Positions 1,066-56,012 of a stretch of DNA of 64,000 bases are shown piece after piece (position 1 is the stretch's first letter; every line of letters begins with the position of its first letter). The stretch covers positions 1 through 64,000 of the forward strand of contig CAIMUX010000138.1 in the NCBI GenBank assembly GCA_903844735.1, written 5' to 3'. Both the position numbers and the translations under genes were made by a program. This DNA comes from Candidatus Eiseniibacteriota bacterium. GTDB taxonomy: Bacteria; Eisenbacteria; RBG-16-71-46; CAIMUX01. Below the pieces are notes generated by a model that did not search any database, had not been told where the DNA came from, and saw nothing but the letters and a program-made list of their open reading frames with translations.

Positions 1066-1407
1066 TTGGAACCCACCCGGTTCAGCCTGGCTTCAGACTT
1101 CCTGATCCCGGCCGAAAACGATTCGGCATCTTCGGGCGTTTCCGGCGGGTTCAGAGATCAACCGCGCGTTGGTTTCCGGGTGGACGCACTTCGGCCGTCG
1201 CCGAAGGCCGGGGCCGTCGGGGACATGTTCGTCTTCGCGCAACCCCGCCACCGCGAGCGCCGGGCGGGTCGGGCGCTGCGGAGCCTGTACTACGGGCGCG
1301 ACCGGAAACGAGGGGTGGACCTCGTCGTGGAGTCTGCCGGGTTCCCCCACGGCTACCCGCTCGACAGCAGATTGCGAGTGACGTCCATGGACGAGCCGGG
1401 GAACTAG
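1066..1407 (+). pseudogene. Possible degenerate nucleotidyltransferase-like fragment
   Basis: The open frame has a TTG start and no clear ribosome-binding site. Its middle part (DMFVFAQPRHRERRAGRALR, then RGVDLVVESAGF) faintly recalls the distal half of short MNT-type nucleotidyltransferases, where a charged helix precedes a VDLVVVTPEE strand. The expected N-terminal GSxxxG/DxD catalytic block is absent, so if the resemblance is real this is a decayed remnant. Its position beside a toxin-antitoxin pair fits, because MNT/HEPN modules share such islands. It could equally be a chance open frame. Confidence 0.22.
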
Positions 1408-1835
1408 ATCGTGCCCGGCCGCACCGCATGAGACCGGCCCCCGAATCCCCGTCACCGGCCAGGCGAACTTTTGGCCCGGCGAGAGCAGCGAAGCGGACGC
1501 CGCTCTCGCCAGTCCCCCTCCCGCGTACAGTCGTCCCACGGCCCGGTCCGCTGCTTTGACTCAAAGACCCGCCGTGCACTCTCTCCGGCGATGCCTGTGA
1601 ATGCGGGGAGATCTCGGGTGAGCCGAAAGCTGGATCGTCCCAATGACGGATGGTTTTGCGCGCATGCCGGTACGAACATTCACATTGTGAAATGCGATCG
1701 TGCATGAATGGACACCGAGTCCCCAAAGCCGGCCGGATGGGAACAAGGACCAGTCTGACAATCTGTACCGGTGGGCGCGCCAGTGCAGACGGGTGTTCGA
1801 AAACCTGTCGGGTGATCGCACAAATCGCGCGAACC

Positions 1836-2110
1836 GTTTGGAAATGTCATCCGACCCTCTGTGAATGGCGCGAGCCGGTACGAAGATCCGCCTGAGGTTT
1901 TGCCCGAACGCTTCCGTCGGTACAAAGGGCAGCCGGCGCTCCGCACGAACGCGGCCGTCGGTAGGAAGGGCCGACCGGCCCTCGGCCCGGATGCTTCCCC
2001 CGGTGAGAAAAGGCGCCCGCCCCTCCGCATGACCCCGTCGCCCCTGCGGAAGGTCGCGCGCTCCTCCGCACGATCTCTTCCGTCATTGGGAAACGCCGAC
2101 CGACCCCGCG
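1836..2110. repeat. Degenerate 41-42 bp tandem repeat array (array 1)
   Basis: The gene-free stretch 1408-2264 contains at least seven imperfect units. Taking the T of the GGTxxxAAGG core as anchor, units recur at about 1839, 1879, 1921, 1962, 2004, 2045 and 2086, spacings of 40-42 bp. The core is roughly CCGTCGGTAGGAAGGGC followed by a GC-rich part ending CTCCGCACGA. The unit sequences differ substantially while the spacing is kept. A period of about 42 bp equals four helical turns. No open frame here looks coding. The array lies just upstream of the element end at 2213 and the rmlA promoter. Confidence 0.6.
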
Positions 2111-2212
2111 CACAAGCGCATTTCACTTTTTGCATCTCGACCCGAGCCGGGTCCAGGACGCAACCGGCCATCCTAACGCGCGTACCGGCTGCCGTCAGGC
2201 GGAGCCCTTTCT

Positions 2213-2248
2213 CCTGAAGCCTGAAGCCCGAAGCCCGCTCCGAATCTC
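2213..2248. repeat. Right end of intergenic inverted-repeat element
   Basis: CCTGAAGCCTGAAGCCCGAA heptamer-like repeats run directly into CTCCGAATCTCA (2237-2248). The same sequence pair closes the complete copy at 27561-27781. The motif ends 16 bp before the -35 box of the rmlA promoter. A matching left end was not found upstream. Confidence 0.55.
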
Positions 2249-2264
2249 ACGCGGAGCCTCCGCT

Positions 2265-7076: not shown

Positions 7077-7775
7077 ATGACACACGCCCTACGCCCTGTG
7101 TCCGGAAACTCTGAAGATGGGGATTTCGTTCGGCGACCGGCCGGATCTGGCTTGCCGGGTTGCGTGCGGGTCTTCCTGGCTCTTAGTCTCGGTTCGTTCC
7201 TGTTGTTTCCGGTGGCGGGTTGTCTGTTCAGCACCCGAACGCCGGAGCCCCCGTCCGTTAACAATGTGCCCTGGGCAGACCCAGACACTCCAGCCAGGGT
7301 CCTTACCAACGTCCAGGTCACTTTTTCGGCGAAATCGATCGCCAACTACGATCGCAGCCTGGCCGATGACTTCACTTTTGTTCTGGCGGATGGAGACAGG
7401 CCGGAGGTCGCACAAGAGCCGACGTACTTTGATGGCTGGAACAAACAGCGGGAGATCGCCGCCTTCACATCGGTGTTCCAGAACAGTAAAGAGACGGTGG
7501 CATTTAGCTGGGGCCCGCCCATCCCTCCGTTCGAGGACATGGTACTGGATCCCGCCGACACTGGCGGCAAGTACTACGAGAACTTGAAGTACCAGATGGT
7601 GGTCAGGCGCGGCGGGGCGGACACCACGTTTTCGGGACTGGTCGACCTGTACCTTCGCGAGCAACCGGGGGGGTGGAGCATCTATAAGTGGGTCGATCGG
7701 CAGGACGGCCTGGGCCACGCCACCCTCGGGCTGGTACGATGGAAACGGAAGGTTTGGGTGACAAAGGAAAATTGA
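7077..7775 (+). CDS. Lipoprotein with NTF2-like domain (paralogue 1)
   Basis: The 232-residue lipoprotein has a signal sequence ending in the lipobox FPVAGC (Cys about residue 43). The mature part contains a segment (VLTNVQVTFSAKSIANYDRS then DDFTFVL) matching the opening helix-strand of NTF2/SnoaL-like folds, and it parallels the next gene (VLANLQRAYGDRKIDEYKKL, EDFMFVF). Function is unknown; such domains bind small ligands or partners. Start: ATG 7077 lies 8 bp after AAGGAG; ATG 7071 is too close to the site. It follows the barrel gene closely, so co-transcription is likely. Confidence 0.65.
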   Translation: MTHALRPVSGNSEDGDFVRRPAGSGLPGCVRVFLALSLGSFLLFPVAGCLFSTRTPEPPSVNNVPWADPDTPARVLTNVQVTFSAKSIANYDRSLADDFTFVLADGDRPEVAQEPTYFDGWNKQREIAAFTSVFQNSKETVAFSWGPPIPPFEDMVLDPADTGGKYYENLKYQMVVRRGGADTTFSGLVDLYLREQPGGWSIYKWVDRQDGLGHATLGLVRWKRKVWVTKEN

Positions 7776-7852
7776 CCGGGCGGTTGGGACGGGGACAGCC
7801 GGCAGACGGGCACAAGCATCAAAAGAATAGGTCGGAATGGGAGGTCGCTGAC

Positions 7853-8548
7853 ATGAAAAGCAACAAACACCGGGTTCTCTCGATCGGGCACCCGGCCACC
7901 GGCTTCCCGGCCACTGGCATCCCGGCCACTGGCATCCCGGCTACCGGCTTCCTGGTCATCGGCTTGCTGGCTATCGGCTTGCTGGCCGGGTGCCCTTGGT
8001 CACCGGGCAAGAACACCGTGATCCCTCCTCCTCCGTCGAACTACCTTCCGCAGACCTCTCCCCAGAATGTCCTCGCCAATCTGCAGAGGGCATACGGAGA
8101 CCGGAAGATCGACGAGTACAAGAAGCTCTTCACCGAGGACTTCATGTTCGTCTTCAACCCGGCGGACGCCGTCGTCCCGGACCACCCGAGTCCTCCCTTT
8201 TGGAGTCTGATCGACGAGGTGACCGCTACCGAGAACATGTTTGCCGACGAACTGGTGACCAAGATCGAACTCAGCAGTTACAATTTCGGCGTGCCCGAAA
8301 GAGTCGACTCCAGCGATTTTCGCCCTCGGGCATGGAAGGTGAGGGTCGACCAGGCCATGCTTCAGGTCTACACCCGGAAAGAGGACGGTACATTGCTGAC
8401 CTTGCTCGTCGAGGGGGCCACCGAGATGTTCTTCTTCGTCGAGGAACCCAGCAAGCCGTCGCCGGTCGACGGCAGGCCGACCTGGTACATCTTCCGCTGG
8501 GAGGACCAGCCGATCGGGGCCAAGTCGACTCCTACCGTTGCCTCCTGA
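7853..8548 (+). CDS. Lipoprotein with NTF2-like domain (paralogue 2), repeat-built signal peptide
   Basis: The 231-residue lipoprotein is related to the preceding gene product: same VLANLQRAYGDRKIDEYKKL / EDFMFVFNPAD pattern and length. The signal peptide is unusual: residues ~11-45 are a tandem run of GFPAT/GIPAT-like pentapeptides encoded by 15 bp repeats (CCGGCCACTGGCATC, 7892-7980) that merge into the hydrophobic core before the lipobox LLAGC. Start ATG has GGAGG at 7840-7844. The stop codon lies inside the left arm of the inverted-repeat element at 8544. Function unknown; probably acts with the barrel and its paralogue at the outer membrane. Confidence 0.65.
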   Translation: MKSNKHRVLSIGHPATGFPATGIPATGIPATGFLVIGLLAIGLLAGCPWSPGKNTVIPPPPSNYLPQTSPQNVLANLQRAYGDRKIDEYKKLFTEDFMFVFNPADAVVPDHPSPPFWSLIDEVTATENMFADELVTKIELSSYNFGVPERVDSSDFRPRAWKVRVDQAMLQVYTRKEDGTLLTLLVEGATEMFFFVEEPSKPSPVDGRPTWYIFRWEDQPIGAKSTPTVAS

Positions 8549-8607
8549 GATTCGGAGCAGGGAACGAATACGACTGGTCTTGGGCTTCAGCTACTCCGAA
8601 TCTCAGG
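8544..8607. repeat. Complete minimal inverted-repeat element (64 bp)
   Basis: Perfect 14 bp arms CCTGAGATTCGGAG (8544-8557) and CTCCGAATCTCAGG (8594-8607) enclose 36 bp that begin CAGGGAACGAATACGACTGG, also present at the left of the 27561 copy, and include TTGGGCTTCAG. The left arm supplies the TGA stop of the upstream lipoprotein. The right arm ends 15 bp before the secD promoter. As RNA it would fold into a long hairpin. Confidence 0.75.
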
Positions 8608-8622
8608 CGACTGGCTTTTGCG

Positions 8623-8652
8623 TTGACACACGCCTACGCGGTTATCTATGCT
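8623..8652 (+). promoter_or_regulatory. secDF promoter
   Basis: TTGACA (8623-8628), 18 bp spacer, TATGCT (8647-8652), about 45 bp before the secD start. The element arm CTCCGAATCTCA ends 17 bp upstream of the -35 box. Confidence 0.7.
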
Positions 8653-11519: not shown

Positions 11520-11682
11520 GGGTTCTCCTGGGTTCTCCTGGGTTCTCCGGGGCGCGCCGGTGTCACGCGGGCTCGTCGAGGGGCGTCCTCACTCTGATTC
11601 CTGAATTCTGGCTTCTGGCTTCCGGCTTCCGGCGACTGGCTTTCGGTTCCCGGCTTCTGGCTTCCGGCTACCGGCTACGGGA
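11520..11682. repeat. Heptamer-repeat intergenic element with leader shared with 24190-24275
   Basis: Three copies of GGTTCTCCTG open the region. A ~35 bp stretch from CGTCGAGGGGCGTCCTCACT (from 11573) follows; it recurs inverted near 24205-24260. About ten 7 bp units of the form CYGGCTT then run from 11608 to 11682. This fills most of the gap between secF and the DUF4159 gene. No gene is seen here. Confidence 0.6.
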
Positions 11683-24152: not shown

Positions 24153-24189
24153 TCTTGTCTCTGTCGTAACGACTCAGGTAGCCGGAGGT

Positions 24190-24275
24190 CAGAATTCGGG
24201 AGTCAGAATTCAGGAGTCGAAATTCAGGAGTCAGAGTGAGGACGCTCCTCGACGAAGTGTGAGGACTCAGTGGTG
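24190..24275. repeat. 14 bp tandem repeats plus shared intergenic segment
   Basis: Three 14 bp units near CAGAATTCAGGAGT run 24190-24231. They are followed by CAGAGTGAGGACGCTCCTCG, the inverse of the segment at 11573-11605. The 272 bp gap between glnA and the next gene is mainly this element. Confidence 0.6.
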
Positions 24276-25228: not shown

Positions 25229-26079
25229 CGGAGATCGAAGCCTTCTTCTGTGACCCCGCCCTGATGGCCGGGTTGCTCACGGCTCGCGGCTACCGGGCAG
25301 AAGACCGCGCGGCGGCTGTTCTGTTGGCCAGGGAGGTACCTGCGGAAACGGCATTGGCACTGCTCGCTCTCCTCGATGACGATCCCGAGGTGCTGGACCC
25401 GGCCGTTGCGGGATCCCTCCGAATGCGTCTGGCCGCAGATCACACCCTGCAACTCCTCGCCCTTGCCGACGGCACGCGACCGGCCCTGCGGCGCGTCGCT
25501 CTGGAACGAATGGTTCCCCGTGAAGAGGATCTGCGCTATCTCCGGGAATTGCAGAAGCACGCCGAGCCGGAGTGGCGGCTCCTCACCGTGGTCGCGATGG
25601 CTCGCGGCGGCGGGACTGGCCCGGTGGCTGGTTTGGCCGATGCCCTTGATGACCCTATGCCCGAGATCCGGATGGCCGCGGCCGAAGCGCTGGGACGACG
25701 CGGCGGTCACAGCGCCCTGGAACCACTGCTACGGCTGGTGGCCTCGCGGGGATTTGACCGGCGATCTGTCGAGGAACGTTGCTGCGTTCTGCTTGCAGCG
25801 GGGCGGGCGGCCCCTCGGGAGGTGTGGCCCGTGCTGGCGCGTCTGGTTGAGCGTCGGCGGCTCCACCTGCCGCGGCGGCGCGTCTGGTCCGAAGAGCCGG
25901 CCCTCGATGCCCTCGCTCGGCTACCGGAACCGGTGCCGACGCTGTTGCGAGACCGTTGGCGAGGTCGCCCGGATCTTCGTGCGGCACTCGATCGCGCGTC
26001 CAGTCAGGCCGATACAGGGTCTTCCGGGGGGGACCGGCATGACGGAACTACGGGCGTTGACCGATCAAGGGCAGCCTGA
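24988..26079 (+). CDS. HEAT-repeat-like protein, C-terminal part after the frameshift
   Basis: The 363-residue frame of amphipathic helix pairs is rich in Ala, Leu and Arg, with a clear HEAT/PBS-lyase-like unit, GLADALDDPMPEIRMAAAEALGRRGGHSALEPLL (about 210-242). In-frame sequence reads meaningfully upstream of the ATG as LRLAENER, so the true protein continues from the preceding frame. HEAT arrays mediate protein contacts. Its 3' end overlaps the HD-GYP gene by 41 bp, suggesting the two are made together and that this protein may be a partner of, or input to, the HD-GYP protein. Confidence 0.6.
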   Translation: MRILAAFRCEEEPDLPFKFGRLLLEILRSEPAEREAALAAEALRNHLQALQRQGRVLVLRRLHERIEPGMAVSPVASRALAEIEAFFCDPALMAGLLTARGYRAEDRAAAVLLAREVPAETALALLALLDDDPEVLDPAVAGSLRMRLAADHTLQLLALADGTRPALRRVALERMVPREEDLRYLRELQKHAEPEWRLLTVVAMARGGGTGPVAGLADALDDPMPEIRMAAAEALGRRGGHSALEPLLRLVASRGFDRRSVEERCCVLLAAGRAAPREVWPVLARLVERRRLHLPRRRVWSEEPALDALARLPEPVPTLLRDRWRGRPDLRAALDRASSQADTGSSGGDRHDGTTGVDRSRAA

Positions 26080-27565
26080 GATGCAGACGGCGCGCATTAC
26101 GTACGGGACAGTTGAGGATCCGGTGCCGATCCTTGTCCGCGACCTCTTTGCGCTGATGCAGTTGCGCCGTCTGCGCGGGCCCGACGACCCACGGGTGCGG
26201 GAACGCGCCGACGGGTGGCTTGGGCAACTCGCTGAGCTCGCGCGGACCAGTGGCGGCCCTGTTCGGATCGTCCGGGCCGGACCCCACATCCGTGTCAACG
26301 GTCTGCGGGTAGCGTCCCATGCAGGCACGCGGCTCGCGCTCAGCTCATTGCGCCTCGACCTCGAACGACTGGGGGCGGGCGGTTTCGAATTCTTTGGCGG
26401 TGTTACCCGAGACGCCTTGGAAGCGTTCCTTGCTATGTGGGGGCGAGGCGGAACCGCCGTGACTTCTGCGATTGCCGAGATCGCCGAACCGGGATCCCGC
26501 GGCGGTGACGTGGCTCCGGGGATCCGCCTCCTGCCGCCGGGCGAGGATGCCGCGGAAGCCGGGAGCGGTTCCGACCTGAGGAACCAGGCCCGCCAGGCCT
26601 TCTTCCATGCCCTCGGGGTGGCCCGTTCGGTGGCGCGGCAGGTAGCGGACCACCGCGTTCCCGAGTTGAGAAAATCCCGGGAGGTCGTCCACGAGATGGT
26701 CGATTCGCTGACCGAGGAGCGGTTCTCTCTCCTCGGTCTGGCCGCCATTCAGGATTTCGACCCGTACACCTATCAGCACTCGGTTCATGTGAGCATCCTG
26801 GCTCTGGCCCTGGGCCAGGAGCTGGGACTGTCGCGACGGGACCTGGCCGACCTCGGTGTCGCCGCGCTTTTCCATGACATGGGCAAGATTCAGATCCCTA
26901 AGGATGTCCTGCAGAAACCGGGCTGCTTCGGTCCGCGCGATTGGGCGCTGATGCACACTCACCCACTGCGCGGCGCCTGCGCCCTGCTGCACTACGGTGG
27001 GCACGGCGATCTCGCGGAGCGCATCATGTTGGTCAGTGCCGAGCACCACATGCGTTTCAACGGCTCCGGCTATCCCCCGCTCGGCAGTGACTGGCAGCAG
27101 GGGCTCTTTTCGCGCCTGGTGAGCCTTGCCGACTGCTTCGACGCCATGACAGCGAGCCGGACCTATATGCGGCGGCCCTTCACGCCGGACGCGGTGGTGC
27201 GCTACATGTGGGAAAGCTCCGGCCGGATGTTCGACCCGGAGCTCCTGCGGCTATTTGTGGCCAAGGTGGGGCTCTGGCCGGTGGGTTCACTGCTGCGGTT
27301 GGAGTCGGGCGAGCTGGCCGTGGTGGTAGAGTCCCCTGCCTCGACCGCGGAGTTGGAGCGGCCTCGGGTGCGAATTCTAGGCCAAGGCCCGCTGGGCCCC
27401 GTGGCGGGGGAGGAGCGGACCCTGGCGGCAGGCCCGGCCGCCGATCCGCGGAGCCGAATTCGCGCGGGGTGCTATCCCCAGGACCATGGTGTGGATGTGG
27501 ACGCGATACTTACGTCCCACCTGCTCCCCGCTGCGGCCTCGGGACGCTCGGTTGTGGCCGCCTGA
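26039..27565 (+). CDS. HD-GYP domain protein (probable c-di-GMP phosphodiesterase)
   Basis: The 508-residue protein has an N-terminal helical region (1-200, no recognised sensor). The HD-GYP domain shows YTYQHSVHVSILALALGQEL, the catalytic ALFHDMGKIQIPKDVL (His-Asp near 279-280), MHTHPLRG, EHHMRFNGSGYPP (GYP near 344) and LADCFDAMTASRTYMRRPF. All metal-ligand motifs appear intact, so hydrolysis of cyclic di-GMP is likely. A ~60-residue tail follows. The start lies within the end of the HEAT-like gene (41 bp overlap). The stop TGA is inside the left arm of the element at 27561. Confidence 0.9.
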   Translation: MTELRALTDQGQPEMQTARITYGTVEDPVPILVRDLFALMQLRRLRGPDDPRVRERADGWLGQLAELARTSGGPVRIVRAGPHIRVNGLRVASHAGTRLALSSLRLDLERLGAGGFEFFGGVTRDALEAFLAMWGRGGTAVTSAIAEIAEPGSRGGDVAPGIRLLPPGEDAAEAGSGSDLRNQARQAFFHALGVARSVARQVADHRVPELRKSREVVHEMVDSLTEERFSLLGLAAIQDFDPYTYQHSVHVSILALALGQELGLSRRDLADLGVAALFHDMGKIQIPKDVLQKPGCFGPRDWALMHTHPLRGACALLHYGGHGDLAERIMLVSAEHHMRFNGSGYPPLGSDWQQGLFSRLVSLADCFDAMTASRTYMRRPFTPDAVVRYMWESSGRMFDPELLRLFVAKVGLWPVGSLLRLESGELAVVVESPASTAELERPRVRILGQGPLGPVAGEERTLAAGPAADPRSRIRAGCYPQDHGVDVDAILTSHLLPAAASGRSVVAA

Positions 27566-27781
27566 GACTCGGAGAAGGGAACGAATACGACCGGCTTCGG
27601 GCTTCGGGTTTCGGGCTGGAGCGCGTCAAGCAGTCTCTGGAGGCCACGAATCAACTCGTCGGACCGGGCCACAAGTTCGGCCTGGTCTTCCGCACGCAGC
27701 GAAGCCGGTGCGCCGGCCCCGGACCGGTCCTTCGCTCGGGGTCTGCCCCCCTGAAGCCCGAAGTCTATTCCGAATCTCAGG
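27561..27781. repeat. Complete inverted-repeat element (221 bp form)
   Basis: Arms CCTGAGACTCGGAG (27561-27574) and TTCCGAATCTCAGG (27768-27781). Inside the left arm is GGGAACGAATACGACCGG and three CTTCGGG-type heptamers; inside the right arm the complementary CCTGAAGCCCGAAG. The ~140 bp body (GTCTCTGGAGGCCACGAATC onward, and GCCGGTGCGCCGGCCCCGGA onward) recurs, split apart, at 35942-37112. The stop codon of the HD-GYP gene is in the left arm. The rest of the gap to 27972 holds a promoter. Confidence 0.75.
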
Positions 27782-27785
27782 GTGC

Positions 27786-27814
27786 TTGACCTCGGCTCTG
27801 TTCGATCCTATAGT
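27786..27814 (+). promoter_or_regulatory. Promoter for the 27972-29956 operon
   Basis: TTGACC (27786-27791), 17 bp spacer, TATAGT (27809-27814). Predicted leader is about 150 nt. The right arm of the element ends 4 bp upstream. Confidence 0.7.
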
Positions 27815-27971
27815 GACGGTTCTTGGGGTCGGTAACAGCCTGCGAAGCGCACGCTTCGCAGGGGTGGAGGCATGGGCCGTGCGGGGCAGGGGTACCGACG
27901 TGATGATCGGAATTGTTCCGAGTCGCCGCGCTTTTCGCATCTTCCCCGAAGCCCGGAATGGGAGACGCCAC

Positions 27972-28448
27972 ATGATCGGTCGGCTTTCGCGCACGCTGGC
28001 GCTGGCCGGGCTGGGCTGCCTGCTGCTCTTCCCGGCCGCCTGCTCGAAGCGTGTGCCGCTGCAGAGCGGCGCGTTCGAAGCGCAACAGAAGGTGATCCTC
28101 ACGATGAAGGACGGTCGCTCGTTGCGCGGGCGCATCGCGCCCGGCCAGCGGGTCGAGTACCGACAGGAAGGCTCGATCTATCGAGCGGATGTTACGGCGG
28201 TCACGGCCGACAGCATTCGCCTGGGTCGGGTTCTCCTTCTCGACGACGGGCGCTACGAGGCGCTCGGTCGGCGACTCGCCGACGGCCAGGTGGTGGTGGC
28301 TCCTCCCATCCCGTTACTTTCCATTTCTCGCGGCGAGATAGCGAAGGTGGAACTGCAGATGTTTGACGGCTCTCGCACGGTGCGGAGCCTCGGTGCCTGG
28401 GTGTACGGGAGCAGCATTCTGGTGATGCTGCTGGGCGAACGGTCCTAG
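27972..28448 (+). CDS. Small lipoprotein of unknown function
   Basis: The 158-residue lipoprotein has a signal GLGCLLLFPAACSK with lipobox FPAAC (Cys about 25). The mature part is a beta-rich domain with VILTMKDGRSLRGRIAPGQR and RADVTAVTADSIRLGRVLLL, resembling small SH3-like barrels that often begin with 'x-L-K-D-G-x-x-x-x-G'. A weak hydrophobic segment lies at the C-terminus (LGAWVYGSSILVMLLG), possibly a second membrane contact. ATG 27972 follows GGGAG by 8 bp. It lies 17 bp upstream of an outer-membrane protein gene and is probably co-transcribed. Confidence 0.65.
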   Translation: MIGRLSRTLALAGLGCLLLFPAACSKRVPLQSGAFEAQQKVILTMKDGRSLRGRIAPGQRVEYRQEGSIYRADVTAVTADSIRLGRVLLLDDGRYEALGRRLADGQVVVAPPIPLLSISRGEIAKVELQMFDGSRTVRSLGAWVYGSSILVMLLGERS

Positions 28449-28465
28449 GAGCGGGAGGCAACTCG

Positions 28466-29956
28466 ATGCGGTGGAACCTGTCCAAGGTCCGGGCGACGGC
28501 TTGTCACGGACCCTTATGCGCTCTCGTCATTCTGCTGGCGGCCGTCGCCGGACCCGCCCTGGCGCAAGAACAAGGGGTCATCTCCCTAGGTCGGATCGGC
28601 CTGCGTGAACTTTCGATCCTTCACCCCTCCTTGGTATACCGGCCGATCGACGCGTTTTCTGTGCGCCCCGGCGGCGACGCCCTTGGTATGGGTGGTGCCT
28701 ATCTCGCCAGTGCGTCCGGAGTCGCCGCTCTGGGATGGAATGTAGGCGGCCTGGCCGACCTGGAGCATCTGTCCTTCACGTTCGACGGATACTCCCGGGC
28801 CGTCGGCGGGAGCGCAGGTGACTTTCCCGATTCACTCGTCCTCGGCGGACGGTCGACCCTCCGCTTCTTGAGCTACCGGCCGAGTCTGAAGGGTGGTTTC
28901 GTCCCGAACTTCATTGCCGCAGGCGTCCCCTTGTGGACGTCGGGGGAGCGCCGCCTTGTGGCCGCCTTCGGTTGGCGTCGCTACGCCGAGATGGCGGTGC
29001 CCGAGCAGGCTGTGAGCGACCTGGTCCCCTCAGGCGCGGGTGCGACGTTCCCGATCGCCTTCTCGATCGACCGATCAGAGAAGGGCGGTCTCGAAGCGTT
29101 TTCCCCGGCCATCGCGTTTCGCTCCGGGCGAACTCTCTCGCTCGGCGCGGTGGTGAACGTGCTGAAGGGGGGGGTGCGCGCCAACACGGATGAGGAATGG
29201 TTCTTGTACCGCGGGACGGCTCGTGCGAACAGCCGGTACTCCGGTTTCTCCCCGGAGTTTGGCGGCCGGGTGAGTTTCGGCCAGAGTGTCTCCCTTGGCC
29301 TCCGCCTGGTTCCAGGGTACACCCTTAAGGTGCGCGACGGCGCATACTCCCGTCGGCAGCAGGGGCTCACTGTGATTACGGCGACCTTGGCCGACTATGA
29401 CCTGACGATCCCTGCCGCATTCGGTGCCGGGGTCGCGTTTCGACCCTCACTGCGTCTGCTGATTGCAGCCGACATGAACACGCAATCCTGGTCCAAGGCA
29501 GAGGTGAAGTACACGAGGACGCCCCCCGATTCGGTGGGACTGCCGCTTGCGGACGTCACCACCTTGCATTTCGGGGCGGAGTACAAGCTCCTCCGGACTG
29601 GCTGGGGCGAGGTGCCGGTCCGCATAGGGTTTCGCACGACCCCTCTGGGGTATCGCGACATCGGTACCGGCGACGTGCGGCTTGACACCCTCGAAACGCC
29701 GCAAGGACGGTGGGTCCAGGCGACCAGCACCGGAATCTACAGTGGCAAGCAGCCGAAGGCGAACGCCTACAGCTTCGGAGCCTCTCTTGTTACCCCCGGC
29801 ATTCGCTATGACGTCGGCTTCGAACGCATTTCCTACGAGCACAGCAAGTGGTTCTTTGACGTTCCCTATGATATGTTGCTGAATCCCGAGAAGGCGACGG
29901 TGAAGGTGAAGCAGAAGGTGAGCAAGATTCGGCTCTCCGCGACCTACACCTTCTAG
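28466..29956 (+). CDS. Outer-membrane protein, PorV/FadL-like
   Basis: The 496-residue product has a signal peptide (LCALVILLAAVAGPALAQE) and a barrel beginning with SVRPGGDALGMGGAYLASAS followed by GVAALGWNVGGLADLEHLSF. This is the PorV/OmpP1-FadL-type pattern in which a plug segment (here RPGGDALGMGGAYLA) precedes strand 1 (N-P-A-G-L in canonical members; here N-V-G-G-L). The protein ends in an aromatic strand (SKIRLSATYTF). Possible roles are transport of hydrophobic molecules or, if PorV-like, docking of type IX secretion substrates. It is downstream of a lipoprotein. Confidence 0.75.
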   Translation: MRWNLSKVRATACHGPLCALVILLAAVAGPALAQEQGVISLGRIGLRELSILHPSLVYRPIDAFSVRPGGDALGMGGAYLASASGVAALGWNVGGLADLEHLSFTFDGYSRAVGGSAGDFPDSLVLGGRSTLRFLSYRPSLKGGFVPNFIAAGVPLWTSGERRLVAAFGWRRYAEMAVPEQAVSDLVPSGAGATFPIAFSIDRSEKGGLEAFSPAIAFRSGRTLSLGAVVNVLKGGVRANTDEEWFLYRGTARANSRYSGFSPEFGGRVSFGQSVSLGLRLVPGYTLKVRDGAYSRRQQGLTVITATLADYDLTIPAAFGAGVAFRPSLRLLIAADMNTQSWSKAEVKYTRTPPDSVGLPLADVTTLHFGAEYKLLRTGWGEVPVRIGFRTTPLGYRDIGTGDVRLDTLETPQGRWVQATSTGIYSGKQPKANAYSFGASLVTPGIRYDVGFERISYEHSKWFFDVPYDMLLNPEKATVKVKQKVSKIRLSATYTF

Positions 29957-30339
29957 GCCTCCCGGTCGCAGGCTGTGCCGGGGTCCGACGAGTCCCCGGC
30001 TCCACCGTGACCGGGGTCGGGCTCTCCTTTGTGCGCCGGGTGTTCGCGCCCTTTGCGCGAGCGGCCCCCTGGGCCGGCTCTGCCGAATCCTAGTGTGACG
30101 CGGCCGCGTCGTTCTCGCCGGTACCGATGTATCCACACGCATTCACGTATGGTCCAATGAGATAGAGACGTTCCGGTTGCGCTCTGGTCCCTCGGGTGTC
30201 GGCGGGCCGGTCAGGCGTGAGATCGCCCGCCTTTCCGTTCCGGTGATTGCACCAGCCAAATCCTTGTCTTCCATGTTGTTGCGATTTCGCTCGCTTCGTC
30301 ATCACCGTTGGCACAGCTCCTGCCAGGGTTATCTCCGAA

Positions 30340-30444
30340 GAGGAAGTCGGGCCGGGTGTGGTCTGTTATCCCAACCCCGGCAGAGAAGCAATCAGGTCCG
30401 ATGGAGATCGGAGCCAAAGGTTGCCACCGCAGCGGCCCGACCTC
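30340..30444 (+). ncRNA. Candidate structured RNA in an 850 bp gene-free region
   Basis: The gap 29957-30807 has no credible gene. A long-range stem, GAGGAAGTCGGGCCG (30340-30354) with CGGCCCGACCTC (30433-30444), encloses 78 nt that contain an exact small hairpin, CCGAT-GGAG-ATCGG (about 30398-30411). A further CCTCC/GGAGG hairpin follows near 30441-30462, and an intrinsic-terminator-like hairpin at 30571. I compared it with SRP RNA, RNase P, tmRNA, 6S and common riboswitch cores from memory; none matched convincingly, although TCAGGTCCGATGGAG is faintly SRP-like. It could be a leader, 3' UTR or independent RNA. Confidence 0.35.
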
Positions 30445-30570
30445 CCTCCTTCAGTGTGGAGGCTGCCAACCAACAGTTGATTCGCGAGTTGCGGTTCACC
30501 TTACGCCACTCGGCATGGTGGGCTTCAACGACCGGACCTGGGGCAAGCGGCCCTTCCCATTCGAGCCCGC

Positions 30571-30610
30571 GACCCCGGTGCGACGACGCCGCGCCGGGGT
30601 CTTCTCTTGT
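30571..30610 (+). terminator. Terminator-like hairpin 1 in the gene-free region
   Basis: GACCCCGG (30571-30578) and CCGGGGTC (30594-30601) form an 8 bp stem with a 15 nt loop, followed by TTCTCTTGTG. Orientation implies plus-strand transcription through the candidate RNA. Confidence 0.45.
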
Positions 30611-30694
30611 GTGCGGAACTTTCGTCTGCTCCGATCGTATGAAAGGTCGTCAGGCGGTTCGCGAACCAGGGAATCGGCCTCTCGCTGCGGGACA

Positions 30695-30750
30695 GGCCCC
30701 GGGATGAAGATCCCGGGGCCTCGTTCTTTGTTCGTTCTTTGTTCTTTGTT
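30695..30750 (+). terminator. Strong intrinsic terminator 2 in the gene-free region
   Basis: A perfect 11 bp stem, GGCCCCGGGAT (30695-30705) and ATCCCGGGGCC (30710-30720), has loop GAAG and is followed by an unusual T-rich tail of TTCTTTG repeats (30722-30750). It ends plus-strand transcription before the convergent speA gene. Confidence 0.7.
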
Positions 30751-30807
30751 CGATACTGCTCAGGTAGACAGGCTTCAGTAGACAGAATTCAGGCGTCGTG
30801 CGCCGCC

Positions 30808-32706
<1,899 letters not shown>

Positions 32707-32828
32707 CCGTTACCTCTCCCGGAGCATGGGAAGGCTTCGCCGGGCCGGGCGACGCACCCATCGGCGACGAGCACCGGGTCGAGCCGTGAGCGCCGCGAGC
32801 CGGTGAGCTTGGACCTTTGCGAGGTCGA

Positions 32829-32857
32829 ACTATAGCGTCCCGGGTCTCGGCCTGCAA
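32829..32857 (-). promoter_or_regulatory. speA promoter
   Basis: On the minus strand TTGCAG (32857-32852), 17 bp spacer, TATAGT (32834-32829). The leader would be ~115 nt. The box borders the 3' end of the PorV-like gene. Confidence 0.6.
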
Positions 32858-32859
32858 GC

Positions 32860-33837
32860 TCACAACGCAACGCCGGCGGTCCAGCGGTGGGTTTCTCCCA
32901 GGTCATGACCGCCGGGCTGCCAACCGTAGTCGACGCGGAAGCCTCCGGCGGTAACGCCGACGCCGCCGCTCGGCTCGCTGCGCCATCCGAGCACATCCCG
33001 CCGTGCGCGGTAGCCGGCGCGCACGGCCAGCGCGCGCACCGGTTTCCACTCCAGGCCCGCGCCGCGCTGCCGCGTGTGAAAGCCGTCGCCCTCCCAGTCG
33101 GCCTGCACTGTGGCGGCGATCCCGCGGAGCGGGGCCTGCCACGCCAGGCCGAGGCTCCAGCGGCGGGCCAGCGGTTCGTCGAGGCCCGTGTAGCGCGTGC
33201 CGTCGGGGCTTCCCGCCCACCGGGTGGTGGAGACGAAATTTGCCGCCTGCAGGCCGAGGGTGAGCGGCCCGAGCGGCCTTTGCACGCCGAGGTCGAGGGC
33301 ATGGCCATCGCAGCCGGTGCCCTTGAAGCCGCTCTGGGCAAAAAGCAGACGATAGGCGAGGCCGGCGCGGGTGCGATCCGTGAGACGCCAGGCGTAGGCC
33401 ACACCGGCCTGCAGTTCGAGATACGTCTCACCGGTGAGGTCGCCGCGCAACGTGGAAACGTCCAGACCCAAGGCGCGCTCCGCGGGCGGTGGCAGAGAGA
33501 CCCGCTCGATACGTCCATTCTGCCATTGCACGTCTCGGCGTGCCCGCGGCCAGCCCAACTGGGCCGAGCCCTGGGTGACCAGACCGAGCCCGAAGAGATC
33601 GGCGTAGGTGAATGCCGCCTCACGCCGCGCGAGCCCGAGAAGCCCCGCCGGGTTGGCGCGAATCGACTCGCAGCCATCGGCCAAGGCAACAAGATTGCCG
33701 CCGAGGGCGGTGGCGCGGGCCCCTGGATCGAGGCGTGGGAAACCACCGGTCAGGGTACCGCCGGCGCGGGCGGACCCCGCCGCCCCCAAAGCCGACGTGA
33801 GCAAGCATGTGATCGCAAGAAACCGCGATCCGCGCAT
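32860..33837 (-). CDS. PorV/UPF0164-like outer-membrane protein
   Basis: The 325-residue product has a signal peptide (FLAITCLLTSALGAAGSARA). The mature start GGFPRLDPGARATALGGNLV continues into ALADGCESIRANPAGLLGLA, the PorV-type plug and N-P-A-G-L motif, then amphipathic strands to the C-terminus. ATG 33837 lies just before the signal sequence; a longer frame to 33915 overlaps the upstream gene. It follows the Cys-repeat protein gene by 17 bp. PorV proteins shuttle type IX substrates to the attachment complex, and the upstream gene encodes a protein with a sorting-like tail; a substrate-carrier pair is an inference. Confidence 0.72.
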   Translation of the reverse strand: MRGSRFLAITCLLTSALGAAGSARAGGTLTGGFPRLDPGARATALGGNLVALADGCESIRANPAGLLGLARREAAFTYADLFGLGLVTQGSAQLGWPRARRDVQWQNGRIERVSLPPPAERALGLDVSTLRGDLTGETYLELQAGVAYAWRLTDRTRAGLAYRLLFAQSGFKGTGCDGHALDLGVQRPLGPLTLGLQAANFVSTTRWAGSPDGTRYTGLDEPLARRWSLGLAWQAPLRGIAATVQADWEGDGFHTRQRGAGLEWKPVRALAVRAGYRARRDVLGWRSEPSGGVGVTAGGFRVDYGWQPGGHDLGETHRWTAGVAL

Positions 33838-33854
33838 GACGAGGATCCCTTCCC

Positions 33855-35864
33855 TCAGTCCCGCAGGAGGAGCCCCTTGGTGATCGAGCGAGCTTTGCCG
33901 GCCGGATCGCGCCACTCGGCACGAACCAGGTAGTACCCCTGGGGAGCACGATCACCGGCACGATTGGTTCCCGCCCAGTGGAAACGGAAGTCCCGCAACT
34001 GTTCGGTCGGGTCCGGGCGTTCCTCCCACAGACAGTCTCCCTCAAGGCTGAAGATCCGCACGACCACCCGGTCCATCGTTTCCGGATTCTTCAGTCCGAT
34101 GTCGTCGGCGGAATCCGTGGACTTGTCCCTTCGGCTGTAGGGGGTGCCGACATCGAGTTGCACTGCTTCGATCCGCGTGACGATGACGGCAAGGGGGCTC
34201 GCCGGATAGGGGAGCGTGCTGTTCCCGGCCGCGTCCTCACCCCGGACCTGGATCTTGTTCTCGCCGAGCAGTAGTTCGAGCATGCCGCTGAAACGACCCG
34301 TGAGGGTATCGGCCTCGACGCGCTCCTGCGGCGTCTTGTTGCGGATGAGCAGGACTACAACGGATTGCGGGGCCTCGCCGCTGACACGCACCGAATCGTC
34401 GGTCGTTACGGCGGGAATCGGGTCGATCCGAATGAGGTCGTCCGGAGGTGGTTCGTTGTCGGTGTTGATCCGCAGGGAGGTAGCCGTGGTTCGCCCGCAA
34501 CCTGTGTCCCGGGCGGTGATAGGGATCAGCTTGTCGGATCCGTCGGGCTGCATCTGAGTCGGGGAGAGAGGCAGGCGGTACCGGATGAGAAAAACTCCGT
34601 CGCCACGGTCGCTTCCCGGCGTCAACACGCTGGAGGTGTCCACGTCCGCAAAGCTGGCCGTGATCTGCAGCGGAAGGTGGCTGATCCAGTGTGTTTCGAT
34701 GACGAGCGAATCCCCGGAGCGGTAGGGCCCATCTTTCTTCCGAACTATCCGACTTGAGTCGGGCCCGAGCACCGGTGGACTATTGGAAAGGCAGACTTCG
34801 ATTCTGCGATCGGTCGTGAATCCGGTCGTGACACTGGCGCTCAGCGGGATCCGGATCCCGGTGCTGTCCCCACGCGACACCGAATCTGACAGCGTGTAGT
34901 ACACCCGGTACCACCCGCCGCCAAGCGGCGGTTCCGGCGTAGCCAGGACTGCATCGTTGCTCGGAACGCCGGGGTCGAGCCGCGAGAAATCGGCCGTCAC
35001 CGTGAGGCTGTCCACGAGCTGGGGTGAATTCGGGACCTCCCAGCGGGTCAGAAGGATCACCGTGTCTTCGCTTGTGAGCGGACGGGGATCGCCGCTGGGT
35101 AGGGTGTCGGGCGACAGGAAATGGTACTCGCTCAGCGTCGGACCTTTTGGGCAGGGGGTCGGAGCGCACACCGTTCCCGTTCCCTGCCAGGTGTCCGGGG
35201 AAAGGCACGCCGGTTGGATCGTAATCGTGCAGGCGCGGAAGGGGGTGCAGCAGGCACCGATGCACGGGTTGGGATCGCAGTCCGTGCCGGCTCCGTGCCA
35301 GATGTCGGGATCCGTACACGCGGCCACCAGGTTCACCGTGCATGCACCCGCCGGCGCGCAGCAGGCACCGACGCACGGGTCGGGATCGCAATCCGTGCCG
35401 GCTCCGTGCCACATGTTAGGATCCGCACACGCGGCCAGCGTGTTCACCGTGCACGCACCCAGCGGCGTGCAGCACGCGCCTGCAGGTGGACACGGATTCG
35501 GCGAGCAGCTTGACGTGCCGTTCCAACTGCTCGGCGCCAGACATGCGGCAATAAAGATCAGGGTGCAGGCGCCTGTGGTCGAATTGCAGCACGCACCCGG
35601 CTGGGGACATTGATTCGACGTGCAGTTCGTCCATGCCGAATGCCAGATGCTCGGACTGACGCACAGGGCCTGGGTGGTGAGCGTGCAGGTCCCCGCCGGG
35701 GCACAGCAAGCGGCGGAAACCTGGGCGCGGGCCGGGTGGGCGAGGACGGCGAGGCAGGCGAGGCAGGCGAGGCCAAGGAGGAACACCGTGCTCGCGACGA
35801 GAAACGACTGACGGCAGCGTGAAACTGCGCCCGGTTCAAAGGTGCGGCTTGGAACGACAGGCAT
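33855..35864 (-). CDS. Secreted Cys-rich repeat protein with FlgD-like C-terminal domain
   Basis: The 669-residue product has a signal/anchor (FLVASTVFLLGLACLACLAV, cleavage near ARAQ). Five tandem ~38-residue repeats (about 50-240) follow, each of the form GACCxPxGACT...ACxxPxxWxGxGTxCxPxPC with six cysteines. The middle holds beta-rich Ig-like segments. The C-terminal domain ends RAPQGYYLVRAEWRDPAGKA and SITKGLLLRD, the FlgD_Ig/type IX-style sorting form. The fourth and third repeats are nearly identical, implying recent duplication. It has its own promoter at 35903-35932 and is followed by a PorV-like gene. Function unknown; likely surface exposed. Confidence 0.75.
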   Translation of the reverse strand: MPVVPSRTFEPGAVSRCRQSFLVASTVFLLGLACLACLAVLAHPARAQVSAACCAPAGTCTLTTQALCVSPSIWHSAWTNCTSNQCPQPGACCNSTTGACTLIFIAACLAPSSWNGTSSCSPNPCPPAGACCTPLGACTVNTLAACADPNMWHGAGTDCDPDPCVGACCAPAGACTVNLVAACTDPDIWHGAGTDCDPNPCIGACCTPFRACTITIQPACLSPDTWQGTGTVCAPTPCPKGPTLSEYHFLSPDTLPSGDPRPLTSEDTVILLTRWEVPNSPQLVDSLTVTADFSRLDPGVPSNDAVLATPEPPLGGGWYRVYYTLSDSVSRGDSTGIRIPLSASVTTGFTTDRRIEVCLSNSPPVLGPDSSRIVRKKDGPYRSGDSLVIETHWISHLPLQITASFADVDTSSVLTPGSDRGDGVFLIRYRLPLSPTQMQPDGSDKLIPITARDTGCGRTTATSLRINTDNEPPPDDLIRIDPIPAVTTDDSVRVSGEAPQSVVVLLIRNKTPQERVEADTLTGRFSGMLELLLGENKIQVRGEDAAGNSTLPYPASPLAVIVTRIEAVQLDVGTPYSRRDKSTDSADDIGLKNPETMDRVVVRIFSLEGDCLWEERPDPTEQLRDFRFHWAGTNRAGDRAPQGYYLVRAEWRDPAGKARSITKGLLLRD

Positions 35865-35902
35865 GGAACGAATGCATCCTCCCTAGGGACCGGCTTAGCC
35901 CG

Positions 35903-35932
35903 ACTATAGAGGCCGGTTGAGAGGCTTGTCAA
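35903..35932 (-). promoter_or_regulatory. Promoter for the Cys-repeat/PorV operon
   Basis: On the minus strand a perfect TTGACA (35932-35927), 18 bp spacer and TATAGT (35908-35903). The leader is about 32 nt and contains GGGAGG near 35880. Confidence 0.75.
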
Positions 35933-35941
35933 ATCGTCCCT

Positions 35942-37112
35942 CCGACGTTATGAGAATCGACTTCGGGCTTCGGGCGTCGGGCGTCGAGAAGTCTCTGGAG
36001 GCCAGGAATCAGCTCGCCGTACCGAGGCACGATTTCGGCGTGGGCCTCCGCGCTCAGCGTGCCGGGCCCAGAGGTCCATCAAGTCATCAGCACTCCCGGC
36101 GGTGCCTTTGCTTCTGCCTCGCTTGACGCTCCCGGATACGGTCGTCAGGAAGGGCGGATCGCACGCGGCGCTCCGGATCCCACCGCGTGGGAGGCCGGAC
36201 CCTTGCGGCCCCCGGGGATCCGATCATGAGAAAGGCCGGATCGCCCGCTGCCTTTCCCAGGTGCCGTGGTGCCACGGCCCGGAAGGTTCCTTCGACTTTG
36301 CCTCTCGCCGCGATCCCCATCGGCCGCCCCCCGTCCCCGTGAGAAAAGGCCGGGTGGGCCGTGAGGGCGGGCGACAGAAACCCACAACTTCTCGTGTACC
36401 TGCCCCGGCACGCTCCAAGAATGTGAAAGTCACTCGTGACCACGGTCGGGTCGGAGTCTGTCCGGGCGAGGTGCAGTCATGCCGGGCCGCGGACAGAATG
36501 CGACCGGGGCGGGAGCAACGCTGCACACGGTCGTACGCAGCCTGTCCAAGGCTCCGCTGCACATCTTTCGGGCGGACAGCATCGTGCCGCCCCGAGCACA
36601 CGGTTACCCGCCGGCCGTCACGATGCTGTCCGCGTTTCAGGCACCGTTTCCCGTGGCACGGCTCGATGCTGACCGGGCCGGGGCACGACTGCTCTCGCCC
36701 GGGACAGATGCTGACCGCTGAGGAGCACGACTGATTTCGTCAGGAACGGAACTGACCCGAGGGGGAGCACGACTGATCTTCACATTCTTGGCCCGAGCCG
36801 CCGGGGGAACACCACTGATTTCCACTTTCCCGCACGAAGCCGCCCGGTGGGCGCGGCTGAAGTCGGGTTTCTTGTTCCTGAGCGAACCACGATCCCGGCG
36901 TTTGGCCCGAGTCTTGATCCTCGTCTGCGCGGGTTCGCGGCGGCCGCCGCCTGCCGTAAGCCCGACGTCGCCGCGGACGCACCGCGCGACGGCGTGGCCG
37001 GGGGACTTTGACGGGGTCGTGATGCCAAGCCGGTGCGCCGACCTCAGACCGGTCCTTAGCTCGGTGTCCGCCCTCCCGAAGCCTGAAGCCCGAAGCCCAC
37101 TTCCGGCGAGAC
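35942..37112. repeat. Expanded (~1.17 kb) form of the inverted-repeat element
   Basis: The left part (35942-36066), with CGACTTCGGGCTTCGGG and GTCTCTGGAGGCCAGGAATC, matches the left half of the 221 bp copy at 27561. The right part (37030-37112), with GCCGGTGCGCCGACC, GACCGGTCCTTAGCTCGG and CCTGAAGCCCGAAGCCC, matches its right half. Between them lie ~960 bp that the short copy lacks, filled with 41-42 bp degenerate repeats. The right arm is decayed to CTTCCGGCGAGACT. No gene I can support lies in this 1.33 kb gap. Confidence 0.65.
36144..36848. repeat. Degenerate 41-42 bp tandem repeats (array 2)
   Basis: GGAAGG-type cores recur at 36153, 36194 and 36235 (41 bp steps), then less regularly. 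A later regular block has GGGCACGACTG-like starts at 36682, 36722, 36764 and 36806 (40, 42, 42 bp), with consensus near GGAGCACGACTGATTTC. The phrase GTGAGAAAAGGC occurs both here (36339-36350) and in array 1 (2003-2014), linking the two arrays. Confidence 0.6.
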
Positions 37113-45749: not shown

Positions 45750-45850
45750 CCGAGATTCGGATGCTTCGGGCTTCGGCTTCGGGAGGGGAGACCATGAGCA
45801 GCCCGAAGCGGCTGCTCGGCGTCCTCCGGCCCGAGGCCTCCGAATCTCGG
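45750..45850. repeat. Inverted-repeat element (101 bp form)
   Basis: Perfect 12 bp arms CCGAGATTCGGA (45750-45761) and TCCGAATCTCGG (45839-45850) flank CTTCGGGCTTCGG heptamers on the left and a complementary GCCCGAAG further right. The right arm ends 15 bp before the ybbR promoter. It fills most of the 340 bp gap between divergent genes; the remainder 45595-45749 shows nothing further. Confidence 0.7.
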
Positions 45851-45865
45851 ATGCAGCGGGATGCG

Positions 45866-45894
45866 TTGACCCGGCGGAATCGCGTTTCTATACT
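45866..45894 (+). promoter_or_regulatory. Promoter of the ybbR gene
   Basis: TTGACC (45866-45871), 17 bp spacer, TATACT (45889-45894). About 34 nt leader before the TTG start at 45935. Confidence 0.75.
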
Positions 45895-55871: not shown

Positions 55872-55966
55872 GCAAAATCTCAGGCCTCAGGCCTCAGGCC
55901 TCGGGCTTCGGGCTTCGGGAGAACAGTCCGTTAGCGCCGAGGACCACGTCGAACTCCGAATCTCAG
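55872..55966. repeat. Inverted-repeat family copy, right end intact
   Basis: CTCAGGC and CTTCGGG heptamers (55888-55920) precede CTCCGAATCTCAG (55954-55966). The left arm is decayed; the region starts at the stop of the glycosyltransferase gene. The motif ends 17 bp before the -35 box of the next promoter. Confidence 0.6.
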
Positions 55967-55982: not shown

Positions 55983-56012
55983 TTGACACATCGCAAGAAG
56001 GGGTGGTAGATT
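55983..56012 (+). promoter_or_regulatory. Promoter of the 56058-61952 operon
   Basis: TTGACA (55983-55988), 18 bp spacer, TAGATT (56007-56012), about 39 nt before the first start. Confidence 0.75.

What the first reader, a model, noticed from the sequence alone, without database searches (positions are those of the whole stretch)
27561..37112. Nested length forms of one element: 64 bp, 221 bp and 1.17 kb
The 64 bp copy (8544-8607) equals the two ends of the 221 bp copy (27561-27781) joined. The halves of the 221 bp body reappear at 35942-36066 and 37030-37112, separated by ~960 bp that hold 41-42 bp repeats. This looks like growth or loss of a core between conserved ends, unlike a simple MITE.
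Basis: seen in the sequence. Interest (0 to 1): 0.68.

Follow-up and report, generated by a model that had tools for sequence, protein, structure and literature searches.

The report
Promoter-hugging miniature transposon with shrunken cores
The three "lengths" belong to one small non-coding mobile element present at about 54 places in this genome, which repeatedly landed a fixed ~16 bases upstream of gene promoters; it got shorter by losing its core, and the long form is simply a copy split by another repeat.

Summary
The 64-bp copy is the 221-bp copy's two ends joined, and the halves at ~35947-36063 and 37022-37105, rejoined, match it at 80%. But the ~960 bp between them is not a core. It is a second non-coding repeat family (B, about ten other copies, none inside a recognisable copy of this element) inserted once, with a TGCC duplication.

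The element (A) is a MITE-like family at about 54 places, found only in this genome. It has ~17-bp inverted ends (CTGAGATTCGGAGTAGG), inverted 7-bp arrays (GGCTTCG/CGAAGCC) and a core resembling the last ~35 codons of an S23 (four-helix-bundle) gene with no coding constraint left. Length forms are internal deletions, one amplified in at least nine copies.

[quoted passage not shown] A -35 box starts 17 or 18 nt after GAATCTC at 15 of 47 ends; other offsets give 0-2. Relatives carry the secD promoter without the element. This matches the target rule of Mutator-type TnGBS/ISLre2 transposases (15-17 bp upstream of -35). Two copies keep 8-of-9-bp target duplications. The transposase was not found.

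Verdict: ordinary as a "growing core"; interesting as a promoter-targeting MITE built on S23 remnants.

The parts
27561..27781 (-). A element, ~220-bp form (coding sense of the S23-like core is on the - strand): TIRs, heptamer arrays, core
   Evidence: TIRs 27562-27573 and 27769-27780
27786..27814 (+). promoter-like site (TTGACC, 17 nt, TATAGT) next to the 27561 copy; offset 7, off the usual 17-18. Same-family genome G001 has TTGACG..TATAGT at the matching place without the element
8544..8607 (-). A element, 64-bp form: the two ends joined, core lost
8623..8652 (+). secD promoter (TTGACA, 18 nt, TATGCT), 18 nt after GAATCTC; promoter kept without element in order relatives
35942..36063 (-). 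left half of an A copy interrupted by B (T3 end decayed)
35903..35932 (-). promoter (TTGACA, 18 nt, TATAGT) of the leftward gene, offset 19 from the A end
36064..37023 (.). B: separate ~950-bp non-coding repeat inserted into the A copy; TGCC on both sides; CCAAGAATGTGAA/TTCACATTCTTGG inverted repeat inside
37024..37105 (-). right half of the same A copy, end decayed
45750..45850 (+). A element, ~101-bp form, both TIRs; TTGACC (45866-45871) N17 TATACT (45889-45894), offset 17
55878..55966 (+). A element copy, right TIR 55955-55966; TTGACA (55983-55988) N18 TAGATT (56007-56012), offset 18
   Evidence: offset read by eye
2213..2249 (+). A right-end fragment (T5 end in sense orientation) abutting repeat family C; TTGGCG..TACCAT at offset 17
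1277..2212 (.). C: third non-coding repeat family with ~42-bp units, at least seven copies

Best explanation
A is a non-autonomous, TIR-bounded DNA element (MITE-like) that spread through this genome by insertion at a fixed distance (15-16 bp between the end of the inverted repeat and the -35 box) upstream of existing sigma-70-type promoters. The target rule and the 7-9-bp target duplications in two copies point to a Mutator-superfamily (p-MULT, TnGBS/ISLre2/ISKra4-like) transposase supplied in trans [inferred; enzyme not found]. Near-symmetric ends allowed insertion in both orientations. The core descends from an S23/four-helix-bundle gene bracketed by inverted heptamer arrays [supported by sequence]. 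Internal deletion, sometimes between short repeats, gave the 240-, 140-, 100- and 64-bp forms, and at least one deleted form then multiplied [shown by the shared junction]. The 1.17-kb form is an A copy split by repeat B [shown]. The copies now decay neutrally [shown].
For: About 54 places. TIRs and duplications: L002 GTCGCAGTT/ATCGCAGTT, L004 GATCGATCT/GATCGATAT, 8 of 9 each at one register. Promoter spacing: TTGACA with at most 1 mismatch at offset 17 (7 ends) and 18 (8 ends), 0-2 elsewhere, 47 ends in 34 copies; promoters at offsets 16-19 in 12 of 34 copies, shuffles mean 0.3, max 3. The promoter was there first: secD promoter in four order relatives (G003, G004, G005, G007) and the promoter after the HD gene in G001, all without A. 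Published target rule 15-17 bp upstream of -35, both orientations when IRs are near-identical (PMC3942029). S23 origin: peptide GPAHRLGMLSAEDHAELVARYGELIRGLQRRLDALRPEA aligns to the C-terminus of an S23 profile at 9.9 bits, above all 2000 shuffles (max 4.3), only in the sense frame; heptamer arrays flank 29 of 52 S23 genes from other genomes. No coding constraint: change rates 0.104/0.139/0.114 by codon position, frameshifts common. B is independent.
Against: Most two-ended copies show no target duplication; with ~20% divergence more traces would be expected. No matching transposase: PF06782 gave nothing (its control also did not ring), and the only PF00872 fragment lacks A ends; the assembly is 142 contigs, 96% complete. 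The 27561 copy has its -35 at offset 7. S23 similarity is 9.9 bits only; Pfam and NCBIfam do not report it. Promoters are predicted by sequence, not measured.
Confidence: 0.72

Rival explanations
1. One reading: one element that grows or loses a core between conserved ends, the 960 bp being a large core.
For: Ends are conserved and core lengths vary; halves flank the 960 bp.
Against: The 960 bp recurs at about ten places, none inside a recognisable A copy, and has TGCC on both sides as an insert would.
Confidence: 0.04
2. A is not mobile by transposase but a regulatory or insulating hairpin kept upstream of promoters by selection, spread by recombination.
For: Fixed spacing to promoters; strong fold of the 221-nt copy, z = -4.3; most copies lack target duplications.
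Against: Relatives run the same promoters without it; copies decay, many are truncated or split, lengths vary widely; the fold follows from the inverted arrays; two copies have duplications.
Confidence: 0.12
3. A moved as an S23/IVS-type element by its own unknown route (RNA or S23-protein mediated), and promoter spacing is a by-product.
For: S23-like core and heptamer arrays as around other S23 genes; published heptameric repeats before the Coxiella IVS S23 ORF (PMC4990558).
Against: 53 heptamer-array edges of S23 loci elsewhere show no fixed promoter distance; no S23 gene detected in this genome; A has TIRs outside the arrays.
Confidence: 0.1

Closest known systems
Mutator-superfamily prokaryotic transposons p-MULT 3/4: TnGBS, ISLre2, ISKra4 group (PMC3942029)
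   Same: insertion ~15-17 bp upstream of -35 boxes; both orientations when the inverted repeats are near-identical
   Different: those encode a transposase; A encodes nothing and no partner was found
Bacterial MITEs
   Same: short, TIRs, target duplications in two copies, many intergenic copies, amplified internal-deletion forms
   Different: no parent IS identified; heptamer arrays and S23-like core; strict promoter spacing (a search for MITEs with this target rule found no clear precedent)
23S rRNA intervening sequences with S23 ORF (Coxiella, PMC4990558)
   Same: S23-type reading frame next to tandem heptamers inside an inverted structure
   Different: A is intergenic, not in rRNA, and its reading frame is reduced to a decayed C-terminal piece

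Membership tests
MITE | short, non-coding, terminal inverted repeats, many dispersed copies | tested here: met
MITE | target site duplication | tested here: inconclusive
   8 of 9 bp in two copies, absent in most
MITE | ends shared with an autonomous element | tested here: inconclusive
   no transposase-bearing copy found, but the assembly is fragmented and only two transposase families were searched
p-MULT 3/4 promoter-targeting transposons | fixed insertion 15-17 bp upstream of sigma-A promoters | tested here: met
   15-16 bp after the TIR end against PMC3942029
p-MULT 3/4 promoter-targeting transposons | encodes or is moved by a Mutator-type DDE transposase | not testable with these tools
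   A encodes none; no candidate with A ends; all 12 genome searches used
S23 / 23S rRNA IVS element | encodes an S23 four-helix-bundle protein | tested here: not met
   PF05635 and TIGR02436 give no match in own genome; only a C-terminal remnant
S23 / 23S rRNA IVS element | located in 23S rRNA helix 25 or 45 | tested here: not met
   window copies lie between protein genes; no rRNA match in the window

The most novel reading that the evidence does not exclude
S23/four-helix-bundle genes with inverted heptamer arrays are a widespread, largely undescribed class of mobile element, and in this lineage one was captured between promoter-targeting transposon ends, giving a MITE that colonises promoters at a fixed safe distance.
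Probability: 0.35. Interest if true: 0.78.

Novelty: new variant of a known kind. Interest (0 to 1): 0.6.

Why it matters
Promoter-distance targeting in bacteria was described for transposase-bearing elements; a short non-coding family with the same rule marks promoters directly in the sequence of an uncultured organism and offers many natural sites for asking how the target is recognised. The link between S23 genes and inverted heptamer arrays (29 of 52 loci) makes the old question of what the S23 intervening-sequence protein does testable as a mobile-element question.

Tried and rejected
hmmscan of the core peptide against Pfam, NCBIfam and PDB sequences: nothing relevant. Micropeptide idea (a 31-codon frame behind GGAGGGCAGACC-ATG): rejected, no codon-position bias and many frameshifts. 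Retroposition by 5' truncation: one-ended copies are commoner at the T3 end, but that end is longer and easier to detect, so not pursued. Exact-pattern scans of GTDB genomes and viral contigs and a plasmid blastn: no match. Naming the organism by SecD relatives was not decisive. Fixed promoter distance around other S23 elements: not seen. IS256-like fragment as partner: no A ends.

Full report
Observation. The 64-bp copy at 8544-8607 is the two ends of the 221-bp copy at 27561-27781 joined. The halves near 35947-36063 and 37022-37105, joined with one TGCC kept, align to the 221-bp copy at 153/192 positions. The similarity extends through the core (79 nt at 81% and 65 nt at 85%), so it is not limited to the heptamers.

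The 960 bp. Searched against the same genome, window 36050-37035 finds about ten other places at 65-90% identity, with end-to-end pieces and one short form that joins 36069-36135 to 36930-37015. None coincides with an A place, although L032 has two heptamer-like units beside it. In the window, B starts after ..GTGCC and ends before ..ATGCCAAGCC: a 4-bp repeat as an insertion would leave. B was not found in 49 relatives beyond short matches of 34-52 bp. So the 1.17-kb form is a nested insertion.

The family. The 221-bp query gives 66 blastn matches in the genome; with the core query they merge to about 54 places on 31 contigs. Among 118 relatives no convincing copy was found. In coding sense the consensus is: inverted repeat CTGAGATTCGGAGTAGG, heptamers GGCTTCG, GGAGGGCAGACCATGAGC, a core, heptamers CGAAGCC/TGAAGCC, CAGTCGTATTCGTTCC, and the other inverted repeat CCTACTCCGAATCTCAG. 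Segment typing of 45 copies shows full cores, cores without the N segment, cores starting at ATTCGTGGCC, and ends only. The ATTCGTGG junction is shared by at least nine copies at unrelated sites, so a deleted form multiplied; the loss of the N segment joins two TGAGCG repeats.

What the core was. Its sense frame reads ..AHRLGMLSAEDHAELVARYGELIRGLQRRLDALRPEA, with the stop codon often supplied by the heptamer array. Against a profile built from 50 S23 proteins it scores 9.9 bits at the C-terminal end; 2000 shuffles reach at most 4.3, and the other frames score below zero or nothing. This is modest on its own; curated libraries do not report it. It is strengthened by architecture: among 52 S23 genes from other genomes, 29 have a period-7 array beside them (score at least 20 of 28; shuffles 0.2% per side), period 7 far above other periods, commonly inverted on the other side, and heptamers precede the S23 frame in the Coxiella intervening sequence (PMC4990558). 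No S23 gene was detected in this genome (the PF05635 control did not ring, but TIGR02436 rang in 28 relatives). Changes across copies are even over codon positions and frameshifts are common: the frame is dead.

Where it inserts. For 47 ends with a good inverted repeat (34 copies), a -35 box (TTGACA, at most one mismatch) starts 17 nt after GAATCTC at 7 ends and 18 nt after it at 8 ends; every other offset has 0-2. -10 boxes follow at normal spacing; 12 of 34 copies have a whole promoter at offsets 16-19, against a shuffle mean of 0.3 and maximum of 3. Both element ends are used. In the window this holds for the 8544 (secD), 45750, ~55878 and 2213 copies and, at 19, for the 35942 copy; the 27561 copy has TTGACC at 7. 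The secD promoter is present without the element in four genomes of the same order, and the promoter beyond the HD gene is present without it in G001: promoters came first.

Mechanism. TnGBS and ISLre2-type transposases insert 15-17 bp upstream of -35 boxes, and near-symmetric ends give both orientations (PMC3942029). A, counted from the end of its inverted repeat, sits at 15-16 bp. Two copies keep 8-of-9-bp duplications; most do not, which is the main weakness together with the missing transposase. I therefore commit to trans-mobilisation by a Mutator-type transposase at roughly even odds within a better-supported frame: MITE-like, promoter-adjacent, deletion-derived, nested by B. The stated confidence of 0.72 is for that frame with a transposase as mover, not for the exact transposase family.

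Limits. Promoters are inferred from sequence. The assembly is fragmented. Offsets for the ~55878 copy were read by eye. The offset window was seen first and then tabulated over all offsets, so the profile over all offsets, not the 16-19 count, is the cleaner test.

Noticed in passing
1277-2212: Third non-coding repeat family (C) with a variable number of ~42-bp units, at least seven copies in the genome; it abuts an A right-end fragment.
   Followed up: partly
L063-L074, L123-L162: S23 four-helix-bundle genes in diverse genomes are bracketed by inverted heptamer arrays whose sequence differs from genome to genome; several sit between tRNA genes or close to start codons.
   Followed up: partly
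8546-8548 and 27563-27565: In both copies the upstream reading frame (7688-8548, 25376-27565) takes its stop codon TGA from the element's CTGAGA end.
   Followed up: no
11573-11681 and 24177-24255: Inverted pair of other heptamer-like arrays (GGCTTCTGGCTTCCGG / GTCAGAATTCAGGA), possibly a second array family.
   Followed up: no
36416-36793: Inside B, an inverted repeat CCAAGAATGTGAA / TTCACATTCTTGG encloses ~380 bp; B also has its own short form (L046).
   Followed up: no
35226-35474: 111-bp tandem repeat inside the leftward ORF 33855-35864.
   Followed up: no
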